Source: Tuwongella immobilis
GTDB lineage: Bacteria; Planctomycetota; Planctomycetia; Gemmatales; Gemmataceae
Reading direction: 5' to 3'
DNA length: 64,000 nt
Assembly: GCF_901538355.1 (NCBI RefSeq)
Contig: NZ_LR593887.1
Location: forward strand, 5,742,920-5,806,919
In this document: positions 28,108-40,425 of the stretch, piece by piece
Layout: each line of letters starts with the position of its first letter
Position numbering within the stretch: position 1 is the first letter of the stretch
Notes under the pieces: model-generated
Told to the model about the DNA's origin: nothing
What the model saw: the letters and a program-made list of their open reading frames with translations, nothing else
Database searches by the model: none
Made by a program: the position numbers and the translations under genes

Positions 28108-30892
<2,785 letters not shown>

Positions 30893-31128
30893 CTTTTCCC
30901 GTCCTCCACATCCCAGCCATCGGGTGATCGTGATTGCTCACAACACCAGACTTGTGGTCCGTATCAGCAGAAAAGCACAGTTGCCGCCGATCCTCTTCGG
31001 AAGACACAGATCATGAGTTGAGTTCTTGCGAACTCGCATCATAAGCTGTTTTTTCTAAGGCTCGTTTGCAACATCAGTTCGAGTGAGTTTGCTTTGCAGC
31101 ATTCCGACTCATCCTGAAGTCGCATGAG

Positions 31129-31156
31129 ATGCAACTTTCTTTCTCAACCAAGTTGT
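31129..31156 (-). other. 5' arm of the predicted 23S rRNA processing stalk
   Basis: The transcript reads ACAACTTGGTTGAGAAAG then AAAGTTGCAT, complementary to 28033-28064 beyond the 3' end of 23S. The arm begins inside the boxA-like sequence. Confidence 0.7.
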
Positions 31157-31164
31157 CAAAGATC
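31149..31164 (-). promoter_or_regulatory. boxA-like antitermination element ahead of 23S
   Basis: GATCTTTGACAACTTG on the minus strand resembles rRNA boxA (consensus TGCTCTTTAACA). The same sequence occurs ahead of 16S. In other bacteria boxA recruits NusB/NusE for rRNA antitermination. Confidence 0.55.
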
Positions 31165-31266
31165 GTCTTGTCGAATCGACTCGTGATAAGCTCGATAACC
31201 GTTTGGCTCTCGCGTTACCACTCATTTCTTCGTTTCATTCGCGTCGCATTTGCTTGCGACTCCCTT

Positions 31267-31294
31267 AACTTAACGCCTCCAAGCGATCTGTCAA
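31267..31294 (-). promoter_or_regulatory. putative promoter for the 23S-5S unit
   Basis: Minus-strand TTGACA (perfect -35) is followed after 16 bp by TAAGTT (weak -10). It aligns with the candidate promoter of the 16S unit inside the duplicated leader. The start of 23S is ~375 bp downstream. Confidence 0.5.
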
Positions 31295-32010
31295 TCCCCG
31301 CAATCGAATGCTTTTGAAATCTCGTCGCCACTCCATGGAGAGTCCGTGATTGCGGACTGGGGTTGTTCGTTGTCCCCGCGCACGCTGCACGCGTTCTTGG
31401 AGAGATTCGGTCAGCACATCGCTCGACATCGGCATCGCGATAACGCTTGATCTACCAGTAACTTACGACAACTTCTTCTGGACTCACGGACTCCCCTTCC
31501 CTCGGTCCAGGCGGCAGGCAAGAGGAAGAATTGGTCGCTGGAAGCGGCGGTGGGCGAGGGTGAAATCGGTGCTGAAAATCGTGTCGGAGCGATGAAAAAT
31601 TCGCGGAGACATGGTGAGCAATCGAGGAAGTGTCGTGGATTTTTTTGCGGCAGTCGCCGGATTCCACTCCCGTTCGGATTCACCTCTTGCGGCGAGAGCC
31701 GATGGTCTCGGCAAATCAGAGAATCTGCATAACCTAACGAATTTCGATCACCATTAACGAATTTCCGAGCAAATGGAGTCCGAGATCTCACATGATTTCA
31801 TTCGGAGAAATCACACGATTATCATGGATGGTCGCATCGAAAATTCTGTGAGAATCACCATGATTGGAGTCGATCATCTGTGATCAAAATGACCGGCAGG
31901 CGGGTGGAAATCATGTCTGGGTTGCGATTGGGCGAGAACAGCAGCACACAATGCGGCATTGAGGCAATCGAATGTGAGATTCGAGAGATGCGATCGTCGA
32001 TGTGGCCGAG

Positions 32011-32049
32011 AAACAAAAACACCCCACCGAGGATGAACTCGGTGGGGTG
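32011..32049 (-). terminator. intrinsic terminator between 16S and 23S
   Basis: On the minus strand CACCCCACCGAG and CTCGGTGGGGTG form a 12-bp perfect stem with a 6-nt loop, directly followed by TTTTTGTTT. It lies ~120 nt after the 16S 3' end, just past the stalk arm. This is the strongest intrinsic terminator in the window. Confidence 0.85.
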
Positions 32050-32060
32050 GGTATATCTAA

Positions 32061-32095
32061 GCAACTTGGTGATGACAGCCTGGATACTGGGCGAG
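32061..32095 (-). other. 3' arm of the predicted 16S rRNA processing stalk
   Basis: The transcript reads CTCGCCCAGTATCCA, then GGCTGTCATCACCAAGTTGC, complementary with few mismatches to the 16S leader at 33821-33862. Confidence 0.65.
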
Positions 32096-32167
32096 GACAT
32101 GATCGAGAGCGGATATGAGTTGATTCGTGAGAATCAGGATCCGATCTCGTGGTTCAACATCCTTAGA

Positions 32168-33666
<1,499 letters not shown>

Positions 33667-33820
33667 TTGTATCGTGATCGCTGCAAGCAGCGGATCGTTC
33701 AATCTGAAAGCTTTGAGTCGCTATGAATCACTCAAAGAACGGTTAGCCAACGATTCCGGGTTGTCTTGCGACCGCCCAGTCTCGTTTCCAAGCATTCTTG
33801 GGTGAGTGCTTCACAGCTAG

Positions 33821-33862
33821 CTCACCCAGTTATCCATTAGGGCTATCTTCACCAAGTTGTCA
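33821..33862 (-). other. 5' arm of the predicted 16S rRNA processing stalk
   Basis: The transcript reads ACAACTTGGTGAAGATAGCC, then a spacer and TGGATAACTGGGTGAG; these blocks pair with 32061-32095 past the 3' end of 16S. The arm starts at boxA, as in the 23S leader. Confidence 0.65.
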
Positions 33863-33869
33863 AAGATCG
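33853..33869 (-). promoter_or_regulatory. boxA-like antitermination element ahead of 16S
   Basis: GATCTTTGACAACTTGG on the minus strand, identical over the core to the element ahead of 23S. Confidence 0.55.
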
Positions 33870-33970
33870 ATCGTGCGATTTGACTTGCGATTCGTTCGAT
33901 CACCTTGCGGCTCTCTCGATATCACTCATCATTTCGTTTCGTTCGCGTCGCATTTGCTTGCGACTCCCTT

Positions 33971-33998
33971 ACAATAACAGCCCAACGCGATCGCACAA
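33971..33998 (-). promoter_or_regulatory. putative 16S rRNA promoter
   Basis: Minus-strand TTGTGC and TATTGT are separated by 16 bp and followed by the conserved GGGAGTCGCAAGC leader. The boxes correspond in position to TTGACA/TAAGTT ahead of 23S. Confidence 0.5.
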
Positions 33999-34081
33999 CC
34001 CCCTCCCCCGGATTTTTTTCGGGATGCCCCGAACCGCCCTCGCGAGTCGTCGTCTTCTGCGACAACCTTCAGATTATCTAA

Positions 34082-36100
34082 TCATCGTCGGCGATGCAGC
34101 CACGGGAGCCAGCGCATTTGGCGATCGGACATTACTTCGAAGTCCGCTTTGGCTTGGAGGTGGGATTGGATTGCTTTCCGCAATGCGGGCACCATCACAC
34201 GGAGTTCTGATTGACAGCTCGGCAACAACGACTCCAGACGTTGCAGGTGTGTGGCCATGCCTGCGAGCAGTTGTTGCTGTCGGGATCGAAATGGCAGATT
34301 GAGTTTGCGTTTCTCGGCAGGAGCCAGTGCCGCGTTGGGATCGAATTGAAATTGGCGTTCGACCCAAGTTCGCCATTCGAGGAGCTGGGCAGTCAAAACC
34401 TCGCCGAATCCTTTGATATTCTGAATCCGCACGACATCGATATCGACTGCCGACACGATGCGATGGGATGCCAGGACTTGTTTGCGGCCTGCCCCGATTC
34501 TTGGAATGTCGGCATCGGCGAGCAGATAGAGTCGCAGATGGCGTTGGAATGCGAGTTGGTGCGCGTGACTGACAAGCTGATGACGTTCGTGTTGATATTG
34601 CGCCGCGAGGTCGCGACAGGTTCGGAGATCGTGGACGAGTTGATTCGTTGTCTGGGCGTGAGTTGTTTGGTACGATTGCACCACTTCCTGCCAACGCTTT
34701 TCCGTATGTCGGAGAATCCGCTCCTGTTCGGCCAGCACGCGCATTCGCTGGCGATATTCCTGATGCCACGGCGATTGGAGCAAATGTACGGTCAGCCAAC
34801 TTCCGAAGAGGATGCCGGCGAAGAGTGCGATGATTGCAAAGGCTGGGTGAATCACGCCGAACGGAAAGGCGACGAGGCAGATTCCCAGCGTGGCCGTCAG
34901 AATGATTGCGGTAAGTTGATGCTCATCGAGTTCATCGGGAATGGGCTTACCGATTGGGGGTGTTCGAGGAGCGTGCGTTTTTCGGTCGATCGGGAAATCG
35001 AACGGGCCTGCGTCGCGCAGTCGTTGTTCGATGACTTGCAGTTGGGCCTCATCAACGGCGAATTCTGCGGAGTCGGTACCGACTCCGAAATAGTATTCCG
35101 GGCCGCCTTTCTGTGCAATTTCGCACCAGACACACGATTTGGCCCCGTTCCAATAGGTGTGCCCTGGATCCACGGTGCAATCGGTCGTGGTGGCTTCGAG
35201 TTGTCCCAGCACGTGGAGCCATTGTTGAGTGGTGGCTCGGGTGCCGGCTTCGCTTCCGCGTTCGAATGCCGACCGGAACATCCGTCCCACATTATCGGGG
35301 ATGGATGCGAACGTCGGTGTGTGCGGCGGGGGTTGCATGTTCCACGATTGCGCGGCTGGCCCTTGGGAAAAGCGATACTCGGCGATGAGTTGCTCAAACG
35401 ATGGATCGCCAGTTCCGAGATAGATTCCGGCATACGGGTGTCGGCCGACAAACAGCAGTTGATAGATGAGAACCGCGAGTCCGAATAAGTCGTGATTGCG
35501 GGTTCGTTGAACGCCCCGGAATGATCGCCCTTGCAATTCGGGCGGAGTGTAATGGGGCACACCCACTTCGCAGAGAAACTGCTGGCCGTTCCAGGGGATT
35601 TGGAATGAATCGCAATCAATCAGATGCACCAACGCTTGATTCGAGACCATCACGTTACTCTGATTGACATCGCCGACGATGCATCCGGTTTGGTGGACTT
35701 CATCGAAGGCGGCGACCAGATTTTTTGCCACTCGAAGCTGAAACTTCCAGCCAGCATTGGGGAAGGTGCGAATGCGTTGAATGGGATTATACAGACATTG
35801 AATTGACTGAGATTCGAGCACCCGCGGCATGAGAAACCCGACAGGCCGACGCGATTCTGGGGAGAACAGCAATTGCGTGGGCCAAGCGGTACACGTCAGA
35901 ATCTTCGGATTCGCCAGTTGCGTCATTGCCGCGACTTTTTGAACAGTCTGCGGCGAGGGTGGCTGGTGGTAGATTTTCGCCACCAGATTCGGGGAGTGCT
36001 CCAGGGAATGGACCGCCCCTTCGCCTCCAGAGGCCAATTGACGATCGAGTCGGATTCGATTTCCCGAGGCGTCGATCAGTTCGGATCCGAGTTTGGTCAT
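34082..36100 (-). CDS. YegI/TerY-P-type protein kinase with membrane segments, coiled coil and HhH domain
   Basis: A 672-residue protein kinase-like protein. Kinase features: G-loop SGGEGAVH (24-31), VAKIY with Lys42, catalytic loop GDVNQSN (Asp144, Asn149; HRD replaced by VGD), IDCDSF for DFG (161-166), and TPPELQG. A metal-ribbon-like C/H...CVWC block follows (308-326), two hydrophobic segments (~397-440), a coiled coil (~445-515), and a helix-hairpin-helix region (IPRIGAGRKQVLASHRI, IKGFGEVLTAQLLEWR; 532-576). This order matches E. coli YegI and the kinase of TerY-P triads. It overlaps the phosphatase gene by 4 bp (ATGA), and the vWA gene precedes that. Substrate unknown; nucleic-acid-linked signalling is suggested by the HhH (inference). 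Confidence 0.85.
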   Translation of the reverse strand: MTKLGSELIDASGNRIRLDRQLASGGEGAVHSLEHSPNLVAKIYHQPPSPQTVQKVAAMTQLANPKILTCTAWPTQLLFSPESRRPVGFLMPRVLESQSIQCLYNPIQRIRTFPNAGWKFQLRVAKNLVAAFDEVHQTGCIVGDVNQSNVMVSNQALVHLIDCDSFQIPWNGQQFLCEVGVPHYTPPELQGRSFRGVQRTRNHDLFGLAVLIYQLLFVGRHPYAGIYLGTGDPSFEQLIAEYRFSQGPAAQSWNMQPPPHTPTFASIPDNVGRMFRSAFERGSEAGTRATTQQWLHVLGQLEATTTDCTVDPGHTYWNGAKSCVWCEIAQKGGPEYYFGVGTDSAEFAVDEAQLQVIEQRLRDAGPFDFPIDRKTHAPRTPPIGKPIPDELDEHQLTAIILTATLGICLVAFPFGVIHPAFAIIALFAGILFGSWLTVHLLQSPWHQEYRQRMRVLAEQERILRHTEKRWQEVVQSYQTTHAQTTNQLVHDLRTCRDLAAQYQHERHQLVSHAHQLAFQRHLRLYLLADADIPRIGAGRKQVLASHRIVSAVDIDVVRIQNIKGFGEVLTAQLLEWRTWVERQFQFDPNAALAPAEKRKLNLPFRSRQQQLLAGMATHLQRLESLLPSCQSELRVMVPALRKAIQSHLQAKADFEVMSDRQMRWLPWLHRRR

Positions 36101-36840
36101 GGTCGCGTCGCCAGCACAAGAGTCTTATCGTCATCCGTTCGCGCATTCACTCGAGCGGAATCGAGAAACGCCCGCAACGGGGCCAAAAGATCGTCCGCAC
36201 ACGCCGCTTGTCGCAACGTCTGGAACATGGGATCAAAAAACGGAGCATGTACGGAATGCGTATCCCATTGCAAGGCAAGGCGTTGCAATCCATCGGTGAA
36301 TAGGGCGATCGCGTGAATCGGTTCGGATTCGATTCGCAGGTTCAAGCGATTTTCCCAGTGGTCATCGATCAGGAAATCGGTTTCATTGGCGTAGGCGGAT
36401 TCGCTTGGCCAAAACACGGTGCGATAGTCGCCGTGCTGCTCGATCACGATTGCGCCATCGCCGATCTGCGCGAAACTGGCATGCGTTGGCCCAATCACGG
36501 CGAGCAATAGTGTGCAGGCCCAATCGCGTGGAGGCGATTGACGCACACTCGCGACGGCGGCGAGTTGATTGCGAACCGTCCCAATCATATGACGGATCGC
36601 CGATTCATCGCCGAGTTGGTCGGGGTGCGCGGATTGAATCGCCTCCACGAACGCATCACAAACGAACGTGGCGGCGTCTGCGGCGTGTGCGGCGGTCCCT
36701 GCCCCATCCGCCACAATGATGCTCAGCCAATCCGCATGCGGGCCATGGAGTTGGAATCGAAACGCATCTTGGCAGGCTTGATCGGCGGCGTGATGGCGAG
36801 TCCCAGCGACCGAATCTCCAATGATTTTCCAGGTCATCAT
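36097..36840 (-). CDS. PP2C-type protein phosphatase (YegK/PphC-like)
   Basis: A 247-residue PP2C-family Ser/Thr phosphatase. Metal-binding motifs: SIIVADGAGTAAHA (DGxG), FAQIGDGAIVI, ALFTDGLQRL and DDDKTLVLA at the C-terminus. The N-terminal GDSVAGTRHHAADQACQDAF is typical of the family group that pairs with YegI-type kinases. Two adjacent ATG codons at 36840/36837 follow GAGG; one is the start. It sits between the vWA gene (gap ~4 bp) and the kinase gene (4-bp overlap), so all three are translationally coupled. Likely reverses phosphorylation by the kinase, perhaps of the vWA protein (inference). Confidence 0.88.
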   Translation of the reverse strand: MMTWKIIGDSVAGTRHHAADQACQDAFRFQLHGPHADWLSIIVADGAGTAAHAADAATFVCDAFVEAIQSAHPDQLGDESAIRHMIGTVRNQLAAVASVRQSPPRDWACTLLLAVIGPTHASFAQIGDGAIVIEQHGDYRTVFWPSESAYANETDFLIDDHWENRLNLRIESEPIHAIALFTDGLQRLALQWDTHSVHAPFFDPMFQTLRQAACADDLLAPLRAFLDSARVNARTDDDKTLVLATRP

Positions 36841-36844
36841 TACC

Positions 36845-37594
36845 TCACAGGCTTGCCCACCCGGCCGGGGAATCGAGTTTGACCTGATGTTCCTGGCCCG
36901 GATTGGAATGCGAGACACTCCGCTGCGACTGGGAAAGCCAGACGAACATCTCTCGGAAACTCATGCCTTTCAGTTGGAGAGGCTGCCGCACCGAAATCTG
37001 CCGCAGAACATCCAGATTGGCTTGATCGACCCCAACTGCGAAGAATGCAAACGAGCGATTTCGTTCACCCTCTTTCACCAATTCCGCAGAGACTTGCCAG
37101 ACATCCGTTGGCTCGCCATCGGTAATCAGAAAGATCCACGGACGATAGAAATGCAGGCCATGTTGGCGATACTGCTGCTTGCGTTCCGAAATTGCGTCGA
37201 TCGCCTTGCGAATGGCTTCTCCCATGGGGGTATTCCCCTCGGCCTTCAATTTCGGAGGAAGGAATTCCCCCGCCGTCACAAACGGTGTGACCGTCCGCAC
37301 ACCGCCACCGAAGGTCATAATGCTCACTTCAACCCGTTGCGCCGCCAGCGGATCGGCCAACAACTCAGCGTGATAGGCTTGCAAGCCGTCGTTCAAGAGG
37401 TCCATCTTGGTGGTGCCGCCGGAGACAACTCGGTACGATTTTCCGTCTTGCTGAACGGTGCGGCCGGTGTCTTCTCCGCGATTGGCCACCACCTCGGCCA
37501 TGGAGCCGGAGACATCCAACAGCAGGATGCACGGGCATCGCGGCTCGGGATTCATGGCCAGTCCGACATCGCCAAAGGGAATTTGCTCTGCCAT
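36845..37594 (-). CDS. von Willebrand factor A domain protein (TerY/YegL-like)
   Basis: A 249-residue cytoplasmic vWA protein. The MIDAS metal site is complete: DVSGS near residue 27, Thr in AEGNTPMGEAI, and Asp in ITDGEPTD. An intervening TFGGGVRTV strand and terminal FREMFVWLSQSQ helix fit TerY/YegL. AGGAG lies 7-9 nt before the ATG. It is the first gene of the vWA-phosphatase-kinase operon and is divergent from tilS-purH. In the family, vWA domains bind partner proteins through metal; the partner here is unknown. Confidence 0.88.
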   Translation of the reverse strand: MAEQIPFGDVGLAMNPEPRCPCILLLDVSGSMAEVVANRGEDTGRTVQQDGKSYRVVSGGTTKMDLLNDGLQAYHAELLADPLAAQRVEVSIMTFGGGVRTVTPFVTAGEFLPPKLKAEGNTPMGEAIRKAIDAISERKQQYRQHGLHFYRPWIFLITDGEPTDVWQVSAELVKEGERNRSFAFFAVGVDQANLDVLRQISVRQPLQLKGMSFREMFVWLSQSQRSVSHSNPGQEHQVKLDSPAGWASL

Positions 37595-37770
37595 TGCACG
37601 GGTCTCCTGCGGATAATCCAGACTCCCAGCGTCGCGTGTTGGATACTATACTTCGGATCATCCTTCGACACAATCGAGTTACTGCTGCTTGAGCATTGGT
37701 CCAAATTCGCGGGGGATGACTTCGAGATGCGCGGATGCCCCGCAACATCCGGCACAAAGGGGTCGATGTC

Positions 37771-40425
37771 ATGGCCGATTGGCTGGAACAGGTGGATCGA
37801 TGGTGGCGGCGGACGATGGGTGAGGCATCGCCGGATTCCGTGGGGCGGGGAGTTCTGGCGGTATCCGGTGGGCCGGATTCGATCGCGCTAACGGTGGCAA
37901 TGTCGCGGTTGAATCGCGGGCCGATGCTGCTGGCGCACCTGGACCATCAATTGCGGTTGGAATCCGCCGACGATGCGGAGTTTGTCCGCGCGTGGGGGCA
38001 GCAGTTGGGGTGGCCGACCGTCATTGAGCGACGCGATATTGCGGCGATTGCGGCAAATCGGCAGCGCGGAATCGAAGAGACGGCCCGCGCGGAGCGGTAT
38101 GCCTTTCTGCGCGCGGTGGCGGACCAGCACGATGCGCGGTGGATTGCCACGGGGCACACGGCCGACGATCAAGCCGAGACAGTGCTGAATCGCGTCATTC
38201 GAGGCACGGGATTGCGTGGCCTGCGTGGAATCCATCCAACGGAATGGCTGACCGATCGGATTCGGCTGATTCGGCCACTCATTGAGGTGCGACGCCCGGA
38301 ACTGCATGCCTGGCTGGATGCTGCGGGGGTGGCCTACCGCATTGATGCCAGCAATGCCGATCCGCAATACACGCGGAATTTCCTTCGCCATCGAGTGTTT
38401 CCCGAACTCACTGCCGTGCATCCGGAGGCGACCGCGGCGTTGGCCCGTCTCGCGGATCAGGCCGGCGAGTGGTGCGAATTGCTGGAACAACTGACGGAAT
38501 CGGCACTTGCGGAATGTCGCTGGGCGAGCGAAATCGGCAGCGTCGCCTTGCGATGCGATCGACTGCGGCAGCATCCGCCGGCATTGGTGCGCGAATGTCT
38601 GCGGGCCGTGTGGCGGGAACAATCGTGGCCGGAACGTCAGATGGATGCCGCCCATTGGCACAGTCTGGCGGAGGTGGTGACGGGGGAACGACCGAGTGTG
38701 GATTTGCCGGGCGGCGTGCGGGGCTGGCGGGTTGGGGTGATGCTGCGGCTGGCGAGTCGGGCAACCGGGCGGACAATGTCAACGAAAATCCCTAAGATCA
38801 CTGCGACATTGCAGCGATCTATCGAGGACATTCCTTCCATGCAGCGGACGATTCGACGAGCATTATTGAGCGTTTCCGACAAGACCGGCCTGATTGAACT
38901 GGCCACCGCGCTGGCCAGTCACGGCGTGGAGTTAATCTCTACCGGGGGCACCCGCACGACCTTGGCCGCGGCGGGGCTGAGCGTCCGCGACATCAGCGAA
39001 GTCACCGGATTTCCGGAAATGCTCGATGGCCGTGTCAAGACACTGCATCCGATTGTCTACGCGGGCATTCTGGCCAAGCGAGACGATGCCGCCCACATGC
39101 AAACCATTGCCGCCCATGAGATTGCGCCGATTGACCTGGTGGTGTGCAATCTGTATCCGTTCGAGAAAGTCGTGGGCAATCCGGCCAGCAGCGCCGAAGA
39201 AATCATCGAAAATATCGACATCGGCGGGCCGACCATGGTGCGTGCCACGGCCAAGAATTATCACGATGTCGCGATTATCACTGCTGCCGAACAATATCCT
39301 GCGATCATCGAAGAATTAACCGCCAATTCGGGTGCGCTGAGTTTGGCGACGCGGGAGAAATTGGCCGGGGCCGCGTATGCTCGCACGGCAGCGTATGATG
39401 CGATGATCGCCGAATATTTCCAAAAGCGATTCGAAGCCAACGACGCGAAAGCGGCCTTCCCCAAGTCGCTGTCGCTGACTTACCACCGCAAGGGCGAGGT
39501 GCTTCGCTACGGGGAAAATCCGCATCAACCGGCGGCGTTCTATGTCGAGCCGAACCTACGTCATGCCTGCATTGCCACGGCGGAAACCCTACACGGCAAA
39601 GAACTTTCGTACAACAACATTCTCGACCTCGATTCGGCATTCAATCTCGTGCGCGAATTCGCCGAACCCGCCGCGGTCGTCATCAAGCATAACAATCCCT
39701 GCGGTGCGGCGACGGCCCCCGCGCTGGTCGATGCCTTTCGGCTGGCATATGCAGGCGATCCGCTGAGTGCCTTCGGCGGCGTGCTGGCGTTCAATCGGCC
39801 GGTGGATGAGGCCACCGCACTGGCGCTGGCGGAGCCGAATCGCTTCATCGAATGCATCATCGCACCCGAATTTGAACCTGCCGCATTCGAGATTCTGACC
39901 ACGAAACCATCGTGGCGGAAGAATGTGCGATTGCTGCGAACCGGCCCAATTGCCGATCGCCCCAGCCAATTGTGGGACACCCGGCGCGTTGATGGCGGGC
40001 TGTTGGTGCAGGCCCGCGATACACTGGTGCAAGATCCTGCGACCTGGAAAGCGGTGACGCAGCGGCACCCCACGGCGGAAGAATTCGCCGCGCTCGCCTT
40101 CGCCTGGAAGGTGTGCAAGCACGTCAAGAGCAACGCGATTGTCTACGCTCAAGGGACGCAGATTGTTGGAGTGGGCGCGGGACAGATGAGCCGCGTCGAT
40201 TCGACGATGATTGCCGGAATGAAAGCGGGCGAGCGCAGCCGAGGCGCGGTGCTGGCCAGCGATGCGTTCTTCCCGTTCCGGGATAATGTCGATCGCGCGG
40301 CGGCGGCCGGAATCACCGCAGTGGTGCAGCCGGGCGGCTCGCAGCGCGACGAAGAATCGATCCAAGCCTGTAACGAACATGGCATGGCGATGCTGTTCAC
40401 TGGGCATCGCCACTTCCGCCATTGA
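37771..40425 (+). CDS. continuous TilS-PurH reading frame: tRNA(Ile)-lysidine synthetase fused to bifunctional AICAR transformylase/IMP cyclohydrolase
   Basis: One open frame of 884 residues. Residues ~1-335 are TilS, which modifies the wobble cytidine of the AUA-reading tRNA: PP-loop [15 protein letters not shown], and [16 protein letters not shown]. Residues ~357-884 are a full-length PurH, which performs the last two purine-synthesis steps: MGS-like [24 protein letters not shown], the transformylase catalytic segment [13 protein letters not shown], and [10 protein letters not shown] ~20-residue linker joins them without any stop codon. An internal ATG at 38839 has GAGGA 10 nt upstream and could also start free PurH. 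The first start has AAAGGGG upstream. A sequencing indel is the main alternative explanation. See findings. Confidence 0.88.

What the first reader, a model, noticed from the sequence alone, without database searches (positions are those of the whole stretch)
34082..37594. Kinase / PP2C phosphatase / vWA operon of the TerY-P (YegI-YegK-YegL) type
Three overlapping genes encode a vWA protein with full MIDAS, a PP2C phosphatase and a kinase with a variant catalytic loop, CxxC ribbon, membrane segments, coiled coil and C-terminal HhH. This triad is recognised in comparative genomics (TerY-P triad in tellurium/stress systems; yeg genes in E. coli), but its signal, substrate and output are essentially uncharacterised. 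Here it is not beside ter genes but directly upstream of the 16S promoter, in the same direction.
Basis: partly seen in the sequence, partly recalled or inferred. Interest (0 to 1): 0.66.

Follow-up and report, generated by a model that had tools for sequence, protein, structure and literature searches.

The report
Planctomycete copy of YegL-PphC-YegI triad
Three adjacent genes encode a membrane-anchored protein kinase, the phosphatase that should reset it and a metal-binding partner; this is a planctomycete copy of a widespread, little-understood switch (yegL-pphC-yegI in E. coli), and its place next to a ribosomal RNA operon looks accidental.

Summary
On the minus strand lie a vWA protein (36845-37594), a PP2C phosphatase (36097 to about 36840) and a Hanks-type kinase (34082-36100). 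They are full-length homologues of E. coli YegL (52% identity), PphC/YegK (37%) and YegI (31%), in the same order. The order vWA-PP2C-kinase is kept in 80 of 80 complete loci from ten phyla, archaea included. The three trees are largely congruent and the active-site and metal residues are invariant or nearly so. So this is a new member of a known kind. In E. coli, YegI autophosphorylates and PphC dephosphorylates it; signal and output are unknown there too.

Corrections: the 'variant catalytic loop' (GDVN, DxDSF) is the family signature. vWA and PP2C probably do not overlap. TerY-P of ter operons is only a distant cousin, and no TerD gene was detected in this genome. 16S proximity occurs in none of the other loci examined.

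Additions: the kinase tail is predicted as a membrane hairpin plus a coiled-coil stalk with an HhH tip, and tails are swapped for TPR or WD40 elsewhere. Some planctomycete vWA proteins carry a 27-residue insertion beside the MIDAS. Some triads sit beside phage-defence genes, a weak lead.

The parts
36845..37594 (-). vWA protein, YegL homologue, 249 aa, complete MIDAS
   Evidence: Pfam VWA 3e-8; 52% identity to YegL, E 2e-80; MIDAS residues in 83 of 83 relatives
37415..37495 (-). 27-residue insertion (vWA residues about 34-60) in the first MIDAS loop, right after DxSxSM
   Evidence: absent from YegL and most relatives; shared by L103, L105, L106, L056, L057, L058, all planctomycetes
36097..36840 (-). 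PP2C-type phosphatase, PphC/YegK homologue; ORF opens at 36918 but the likely start is the ATG at 36840 or 36837
   Evidence: PP2C_2 9e-46; 37% identity to PphC; GAGG before the ATG, 4-nt gap to the vWA stop
34082..36100 (-). Membrane-anchored Ser/Thr-type kinase, YegI homologue, 672 aa; 4-nt ATGA overlap with the PP2C gene
   Evidence: 31% identity to YegI over the full length, E 8e-103; Pkinase 1.9e-8; AlphaFold2 mean pLDDT 90.3; overlap read
35186..36076 (-). kinase domain, residues about 9-305, with GGEG, AK42, GD144-V-N146, D162-C-D164-S-F
   Evidence: conservation; PknB/RAF-type kinase fold, Z about 20
35123..35179 (-). putative zinc site C308-x5-H314-x8-C323-x2-C326
   Evidence: 94 of 97 kinases; invariant in alignment A3
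34775..34930 (-). two hydrophobic helices (residues 391-442), predicted membrane hairpin
   Evidence: hydropathy above 1.6; helices 391-417 and 419-442 in the model
34109..34771 (-). antiparallel coiled-coil stalk (helices 444-524 and 594-664) with a tandem HhH tip (residues about 525-582)
   Evidence: model of the tail alone, mean pLDDT 95.4; HhH motif alignment
33668..34060 (-). upstream region of the 16S gene, shared with other rRNA copies of the genome; not part of the triad
   Evidence: another copy identical from query position 141, i.e. window 34060, onward

Best explanation
A self-contained, membrane-anchored phospho-switch, homologous to and very probably equivalent to E. coli YegL-PphC-YegI. 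The kinase is held at the inner membrane by a helical hairpin, with both its catalytic domain and its HhH-tipped coiled-coil stalk in the cytoplasm. Binding of a ligand (nucleic acid or a protein) at the stalk tip, or a change at the zinc site, promotes autophosphorylation. The PP2C enzyme removes the phosphates and resets the switch. The vWA protein binds through its MIDAS Mg2+ to an acidic or phosphorylated surface and acts as adaptor or as the regulated output. Shown in E. coli by others: kinase autophosphorylation, its reversal by PphC, and inner-membrane location. Shown here: homology, operon structure, co-inheritance, conserved active sites, predicted tail architecture. Inferred: topology, sensing at the tip, the role of the vWA protein, and everything about signal and output.
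For: Full-length homology and same order as yegL-pphC-yegI. Gene order kept in 80 of 80 complete loci, with small gaps or overlaps in most. Distance matrices of the three proteins correlate at 0.88-0.92 against a permutation maximum of about 0.14, and the window groups with L103, L105 and L106 in all three trees. Kinase K42, D144, N146, D162, D164, PP2C D71, D154, D209, D263, D264 and MIDAS D27, S29, S31, T122, D159 are present in 96-100% of sequences. Kinase fold and stalk model at high confidence. Biochemistry of YegI and PphC as reported in PMC13232886 and PMC12189002.
Against: No biochemistry exists for the planctomycete proteins. HhH hairpins are degenerate in some relatives (L029, L046, L048) and the whole tail is replaced in cyanobacteria, so nucleic-acid binding cannot be a general property of the family. 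Correlated distances partly reflect shared descent; no control gene was tested. A few loci hold a lone kinase or lack the PP2C gene. The vWA role rests on analogy.
Confidence: 0.72

Rival explanations
1. The triad is an anti-phage defence module, as reported for TerY-P-like systems, in which infection triggers phosphorylation of a target that stops growth.
For: TerY-P-like triads with an OB-fold kinase defend against T7-like phages (PMC7699616, PMC11090510). Patchy occurrence: 16 of 79 close relatives, 7 of 294 phylum genomes (lower bounds), and on plasmids. Strong PADLOC matches beside some triads: Dpd/Druantia-like helicases in L106, Lamassu in L024, type I REase in L042, HEC-06/Orf5 in L038, methyltransferase in L047, PifA-like in L084, against 2 families in a size-matched control.
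Against: The window neighbours are housekeeping (rRNA, TilS-PurH). Most neighbours of triads are metabolic or transport genes. The control is small and not matched by phylum. The phage-tested TerY-P kinases have a different C-terminus.
Confidence: 0.2
2. It is a bona fide ter-type TerY-P metal or tellurite stress module.
For: Same three domain types, and the ter-operon kinase also has a cysteine-rich segment after the kinase domain; profile matches TerY1 9e-36 and kinase 3.7e-20.
Against: Only 23% identity over part of the kinase; catalytic loop HSDLSYKN instead of GDVN; the ter-operon kinase is shorter (499 aa) and its sequence shows no counterpart of the stalk tail; no TerD family gene detected in the genome.
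Confidence: 0.06
3. The triad is functionally tied to rRNA synthesis because it lies just upstream of a 16S gene in the same direction.
For: Position and direction; no terminator-like site found between the kinase and the 16S gene.
Against: No rRNA gene was found by blastn in any of the other loci. The genome has four 16S copies with a common upstream region, and only this one adjoins the triad.
Confidence: 0.02

Closest known systems
E. coli YegL-PphC(YegK)-YegI
   Same: All three proteins full length, same gene order, GDVN/DxDSF motifs, CHCC site, membrane helices, HhH motifs in the tail
   Different: E. coli K-12 carries yegJ between pphC and yegI and the Hsp70 gene yegD next to yegI; the window vWA has a 27-residue insertion at the MIDAS loop
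TerY-P triad of tellurium-resistance (ter) operons
   Same: vWA plus kinase with a cysteine-rich segment; significant profile matches for vWA and kinase
   Different: HSDLSYKN catalytic loop, no stalk tail seen, linked to ter genes
TerY-P-like phage defence systems of Gao et al. 2020
   Same: vWA, PP2C and kinase combination (PMC7699616)
   Different: Kinase fused to an OB fold rather than to a stalk with HhH (PMC11090510)

Membership tests
YegL-PphC-YegI family | Full-length homology of all three proteins | tested here: met
   E 2e-80, 5e-47, 8e-103
YegL-PphC-YegI family | Gene order vWA-PP2C-kinase on one strand | tested here: met
   window and 79 other complete loci
YegL-PphC-YegI family | GDVN catalytic loop and DxDS motif | tested here: met
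YegL-PphC-YegI family | Membrane anchor in the kinase | tested here: met
   prediction only, by hydropathy and model
YegL-PphC-YegI family | Autophosphorylation reversed by the phosphatase | not testable with these tools
   shown by others for E. coli only
TerY-P of ter operons | Homology of vWA, PP2C and kinase to the ter-operon proteins | tested here: inconclusive
   vWA and kinase match distantly; in the reference used, the region between TerY3 and the kinase is disrupted by an IS5 element and no PP2C was identified
TerY-P of ter operons | Linkage to, or presence of, TerD-family genes | tested here: not met
   no TerD match in the genome; the search rang in 2 of 14 control genomes
TerY-P phage defence (PADLOC) | PADLOC TerY-P models | tested here: inconclusive
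   TerY E 0.0038 only; the same library also misses ter-operon TerY proteins, so a miss says little
TerY-P phage defence | OB fold at the kinase C-terminus | tested here: not met
   models show a helical stalk with HhH instead

The most novel reading that the evidence does not exclude
The YegI-type kinase is a membrane-anchored sensor whose HhH-tipped stalk detects nucleic acid (for example foreign or damaged DNA at the membrane) and the triad is a stand-alone defence or stress switch, with the tail swapped for other sensing modules (TPR, WD40) in other lineages and a planctomycete-specific MIDAS insertion that retunes vWA binding.
Probability: 0.18. Interest if true: 0.62.

Novelty: new member of a known kind. 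Interest (0 to 1): 0.32.

Why it matters
The family is found in at least ten phyla and in E. coli K-12, yet its signal, substrate and output are unknown. This survey shows that the three genes are inherited as one unit, that no fourth gene is shared across lineages, and that the variable part is the kinase tail, which points to the tail as the sensing end and makes it a clear target for experiments in E. coli.

Tried and rejected
rRNA linkage as a functional clue: no rRNA gene at any other locus. Ter linkage: no TerD. A conserved fourth gene: none across lineages; recurrent neighbours were confined to single clades such as Escherichia (yegD) or heterocystous cyanobacteria (sugar and LPS genes). 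PADLOC as a test of TerY-P membership: uninformative, since it misses ter-operon TerY too. PDB fold search of the tail alone: no match at E below 0.001, and only generic coiled coils or weak HhH pieces; this does not show that the fold is new. PDB sequence searches of the vWA and PP2C proteins: no match at E 0.01. The primary papers on YegI and PphC are not held, so their content is cited second-hand. Phage records: only partial kinase-domain matches.

Full report
What is there. Three ORFs on the minus strand at the stated coordinates match Pfam VWA, PP2C_2 and Pkinase. BLASTP against E. coli MG1655 proteins gives YegL 52% identity (2e-80), PphC/YegK 37% (5e-47) and YegI 31% over nearly the full length (8e-103), in the same order yegL-pphC-yegI. 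The kinase and PP2C genes overlap by four bases. The PP2C ORF can be opened upstream inside the vWA gene, but E. coli PphC starts at the equivalent of the ATG at 36840, which has a GAGG before it and lies four bases after the vWA stop. The genome has one such vWA and one such kinase gene.

How general it is. A scan of genome contigs with the kinase gave 80 loci, and whole-genome searches added more. Profile searches found 99 loci with a kinase; in 80 all three genes were found, and in all 80 the order is vWA-PP2C-kinase on one strand. They come from Pseudomonadota, Thermodesulfobacteriota, Acidobacteriota, Cyanobacteriota, Bacillota, Thermomicrobiota, Planctomycetota, Lentisphaerota, Latescibacterota and methanogenic archaea. 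Distances of the three proteins correlate at 0.88-0.92, and the window groups with the same three relatives (L103, L105, L106) in all three trees (the vWA tree is a quick one). Shared descent contributes to such correlations and no control gene was tested. In the order and family of the window the triad is patchy: 16 of 79 relatives, 7 of 294 genomes of the phylum at stricter thresholds, both lower bounds. Copies also occur on plasmids.

Active sites. In the kinases K42, D144, N146, D162, D164 are present in 96 or 97 of 97 sequences; the loop reads GDVN and the following motif DxDSF. The position of the usual HRDxKxxN asparagine (N149) varies (Ser in E. coli). The C308-H314-C323-C326 set is present in 94 of 97. 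PP2C aspartates D71, D154, D209, D263 and D264 are invariant in 80 of 80. The MIDAS is invariant in 83 of 83.

Tail of the kinase. AlphaFold2 on an alignment of 39 relatives gives mean pLDDT 90.3, and the tail alone 95.4: two hydrophobic helices, a helix from 444 to 524, a tandem HhH-like tip, and a return helix from 594 to 664. A short turn between the two hydrophobic helices suggests a hairpin with both ends in the cytoplasm (inference). No PDB entry matches the tail convincingly, which does not show novelty. Pfam calls HHH_5 in 4 of 39 relatives but not in the window protein. In cyanobacteria the tail is replaced by TPR repeats, in one Chthonomonas relative by WD40 repeats, and in several relatives TPRs are present as well. 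Some HhH tips have lost the GxG hairpins. The tail therefore looks like an exchangeable sensing or docking part.

Insertion in the vWA protein. Right after DxSxSM the window protein has 27 extra residues absent from YegL. Six other planctomycete proteins share them (L103, L105, L106, L056, L057, L058) while other planctomycete members lack them. It lies in the first MIDAS loop and could change what the domain binds (inference).

Relation to TerY-P. Family profiles match ter-operon TerY (9e-36) and the ter-operon kinase (3.7e-20), so the triads are kin. But the ter kinase has a different catalytic loop and no stalk is evident in its sequence, and no TerD was detected in this genome. The phage-defence TerY-P-like kinases carry an OB fold (PMC11090510). 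PADLOC models fail on ter-operon TerY as well, so its silence on the window proteins means little.

Surroundings. No rRNA gene was found near any other triad. The genome has four 16S copies with a shared upstream region that begins about 22 nt after the kinase stop, so the rRNA unit is complete in itself and the adjacency is best taken as accidental. No gene recurs beside the triad across lineages. Of 92 near neighbours, several match phage-defence families strongly (Lamassu in L024, type I REase in L042, HEC-06/Orf5 in L038, methyltransferase in L047, PifA-like in L084), and L106 has Dpd/Druantia-like helicases, while 92 ORFs from other regions gave two families. That control is small and drawn mostly from planctomycetes, and it was set up after the L106 case had been noticed, so this is a lead and not a result.

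Mechanism. The best reading is a membrane-anchored phospho-switch: kinase autophosphorylation, reset by PP2C, vWA as MIDAS-dependent adaptor or output, sensing at the zinc site or the stalk tip. The first two steps are shown by others in E. coli; the rest is inferred. Verdict: a real and well-conserved system, a new member of a known kind, with an open biological question that belongs to the family rather than to this locus.

Noticed in passing
window 37735-40425 (+): One ORF encodes TilS (tRNA-Ile lysidine synthetase) followed by PurH (Pfam ATP_bind_3, MGS, AICARFT). In relatives G005 and G009 the two also lie in one open frame, in others they are separate or adjacent with a stop between: a probable TilS-PurH fusion in part of this family.
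   Followed up: partly
window 28108-33667 (-) and G000 copies: Four 16S and four 23S copies; two linked pairs, one place where the 23S lies upstream of the 16S, and one 16S and one 23S apart. A segment of about 160 bp from upstream of the 16S recurs at 77-82% identity upstream of the 23S (window about 31139-31299), as if 16S and 23S each carried a copy of the same upstream element. No tRNA in the 16S-23S spacer.
   Followed up: partly
L106:3-12650: In a relative of the same order the triad lies beside genes matching DpdE (2e-266) and Druantia/Dpd-type helicases.
   Followed up: partly
L069-L102 (heterocystous cyanobacteria): The TPR-tailed triads sit upstream of a conserved set of sugar-nucleotide and LPS-type genes in 28 loci.
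   Followed up: no
L104 (G032:C17), L041, L054: Kinase frames broken by a stop or frame change in one planctomycete and two Escherichia genomes, suggesting that the triad is sometimes lost.
   Followed up: no
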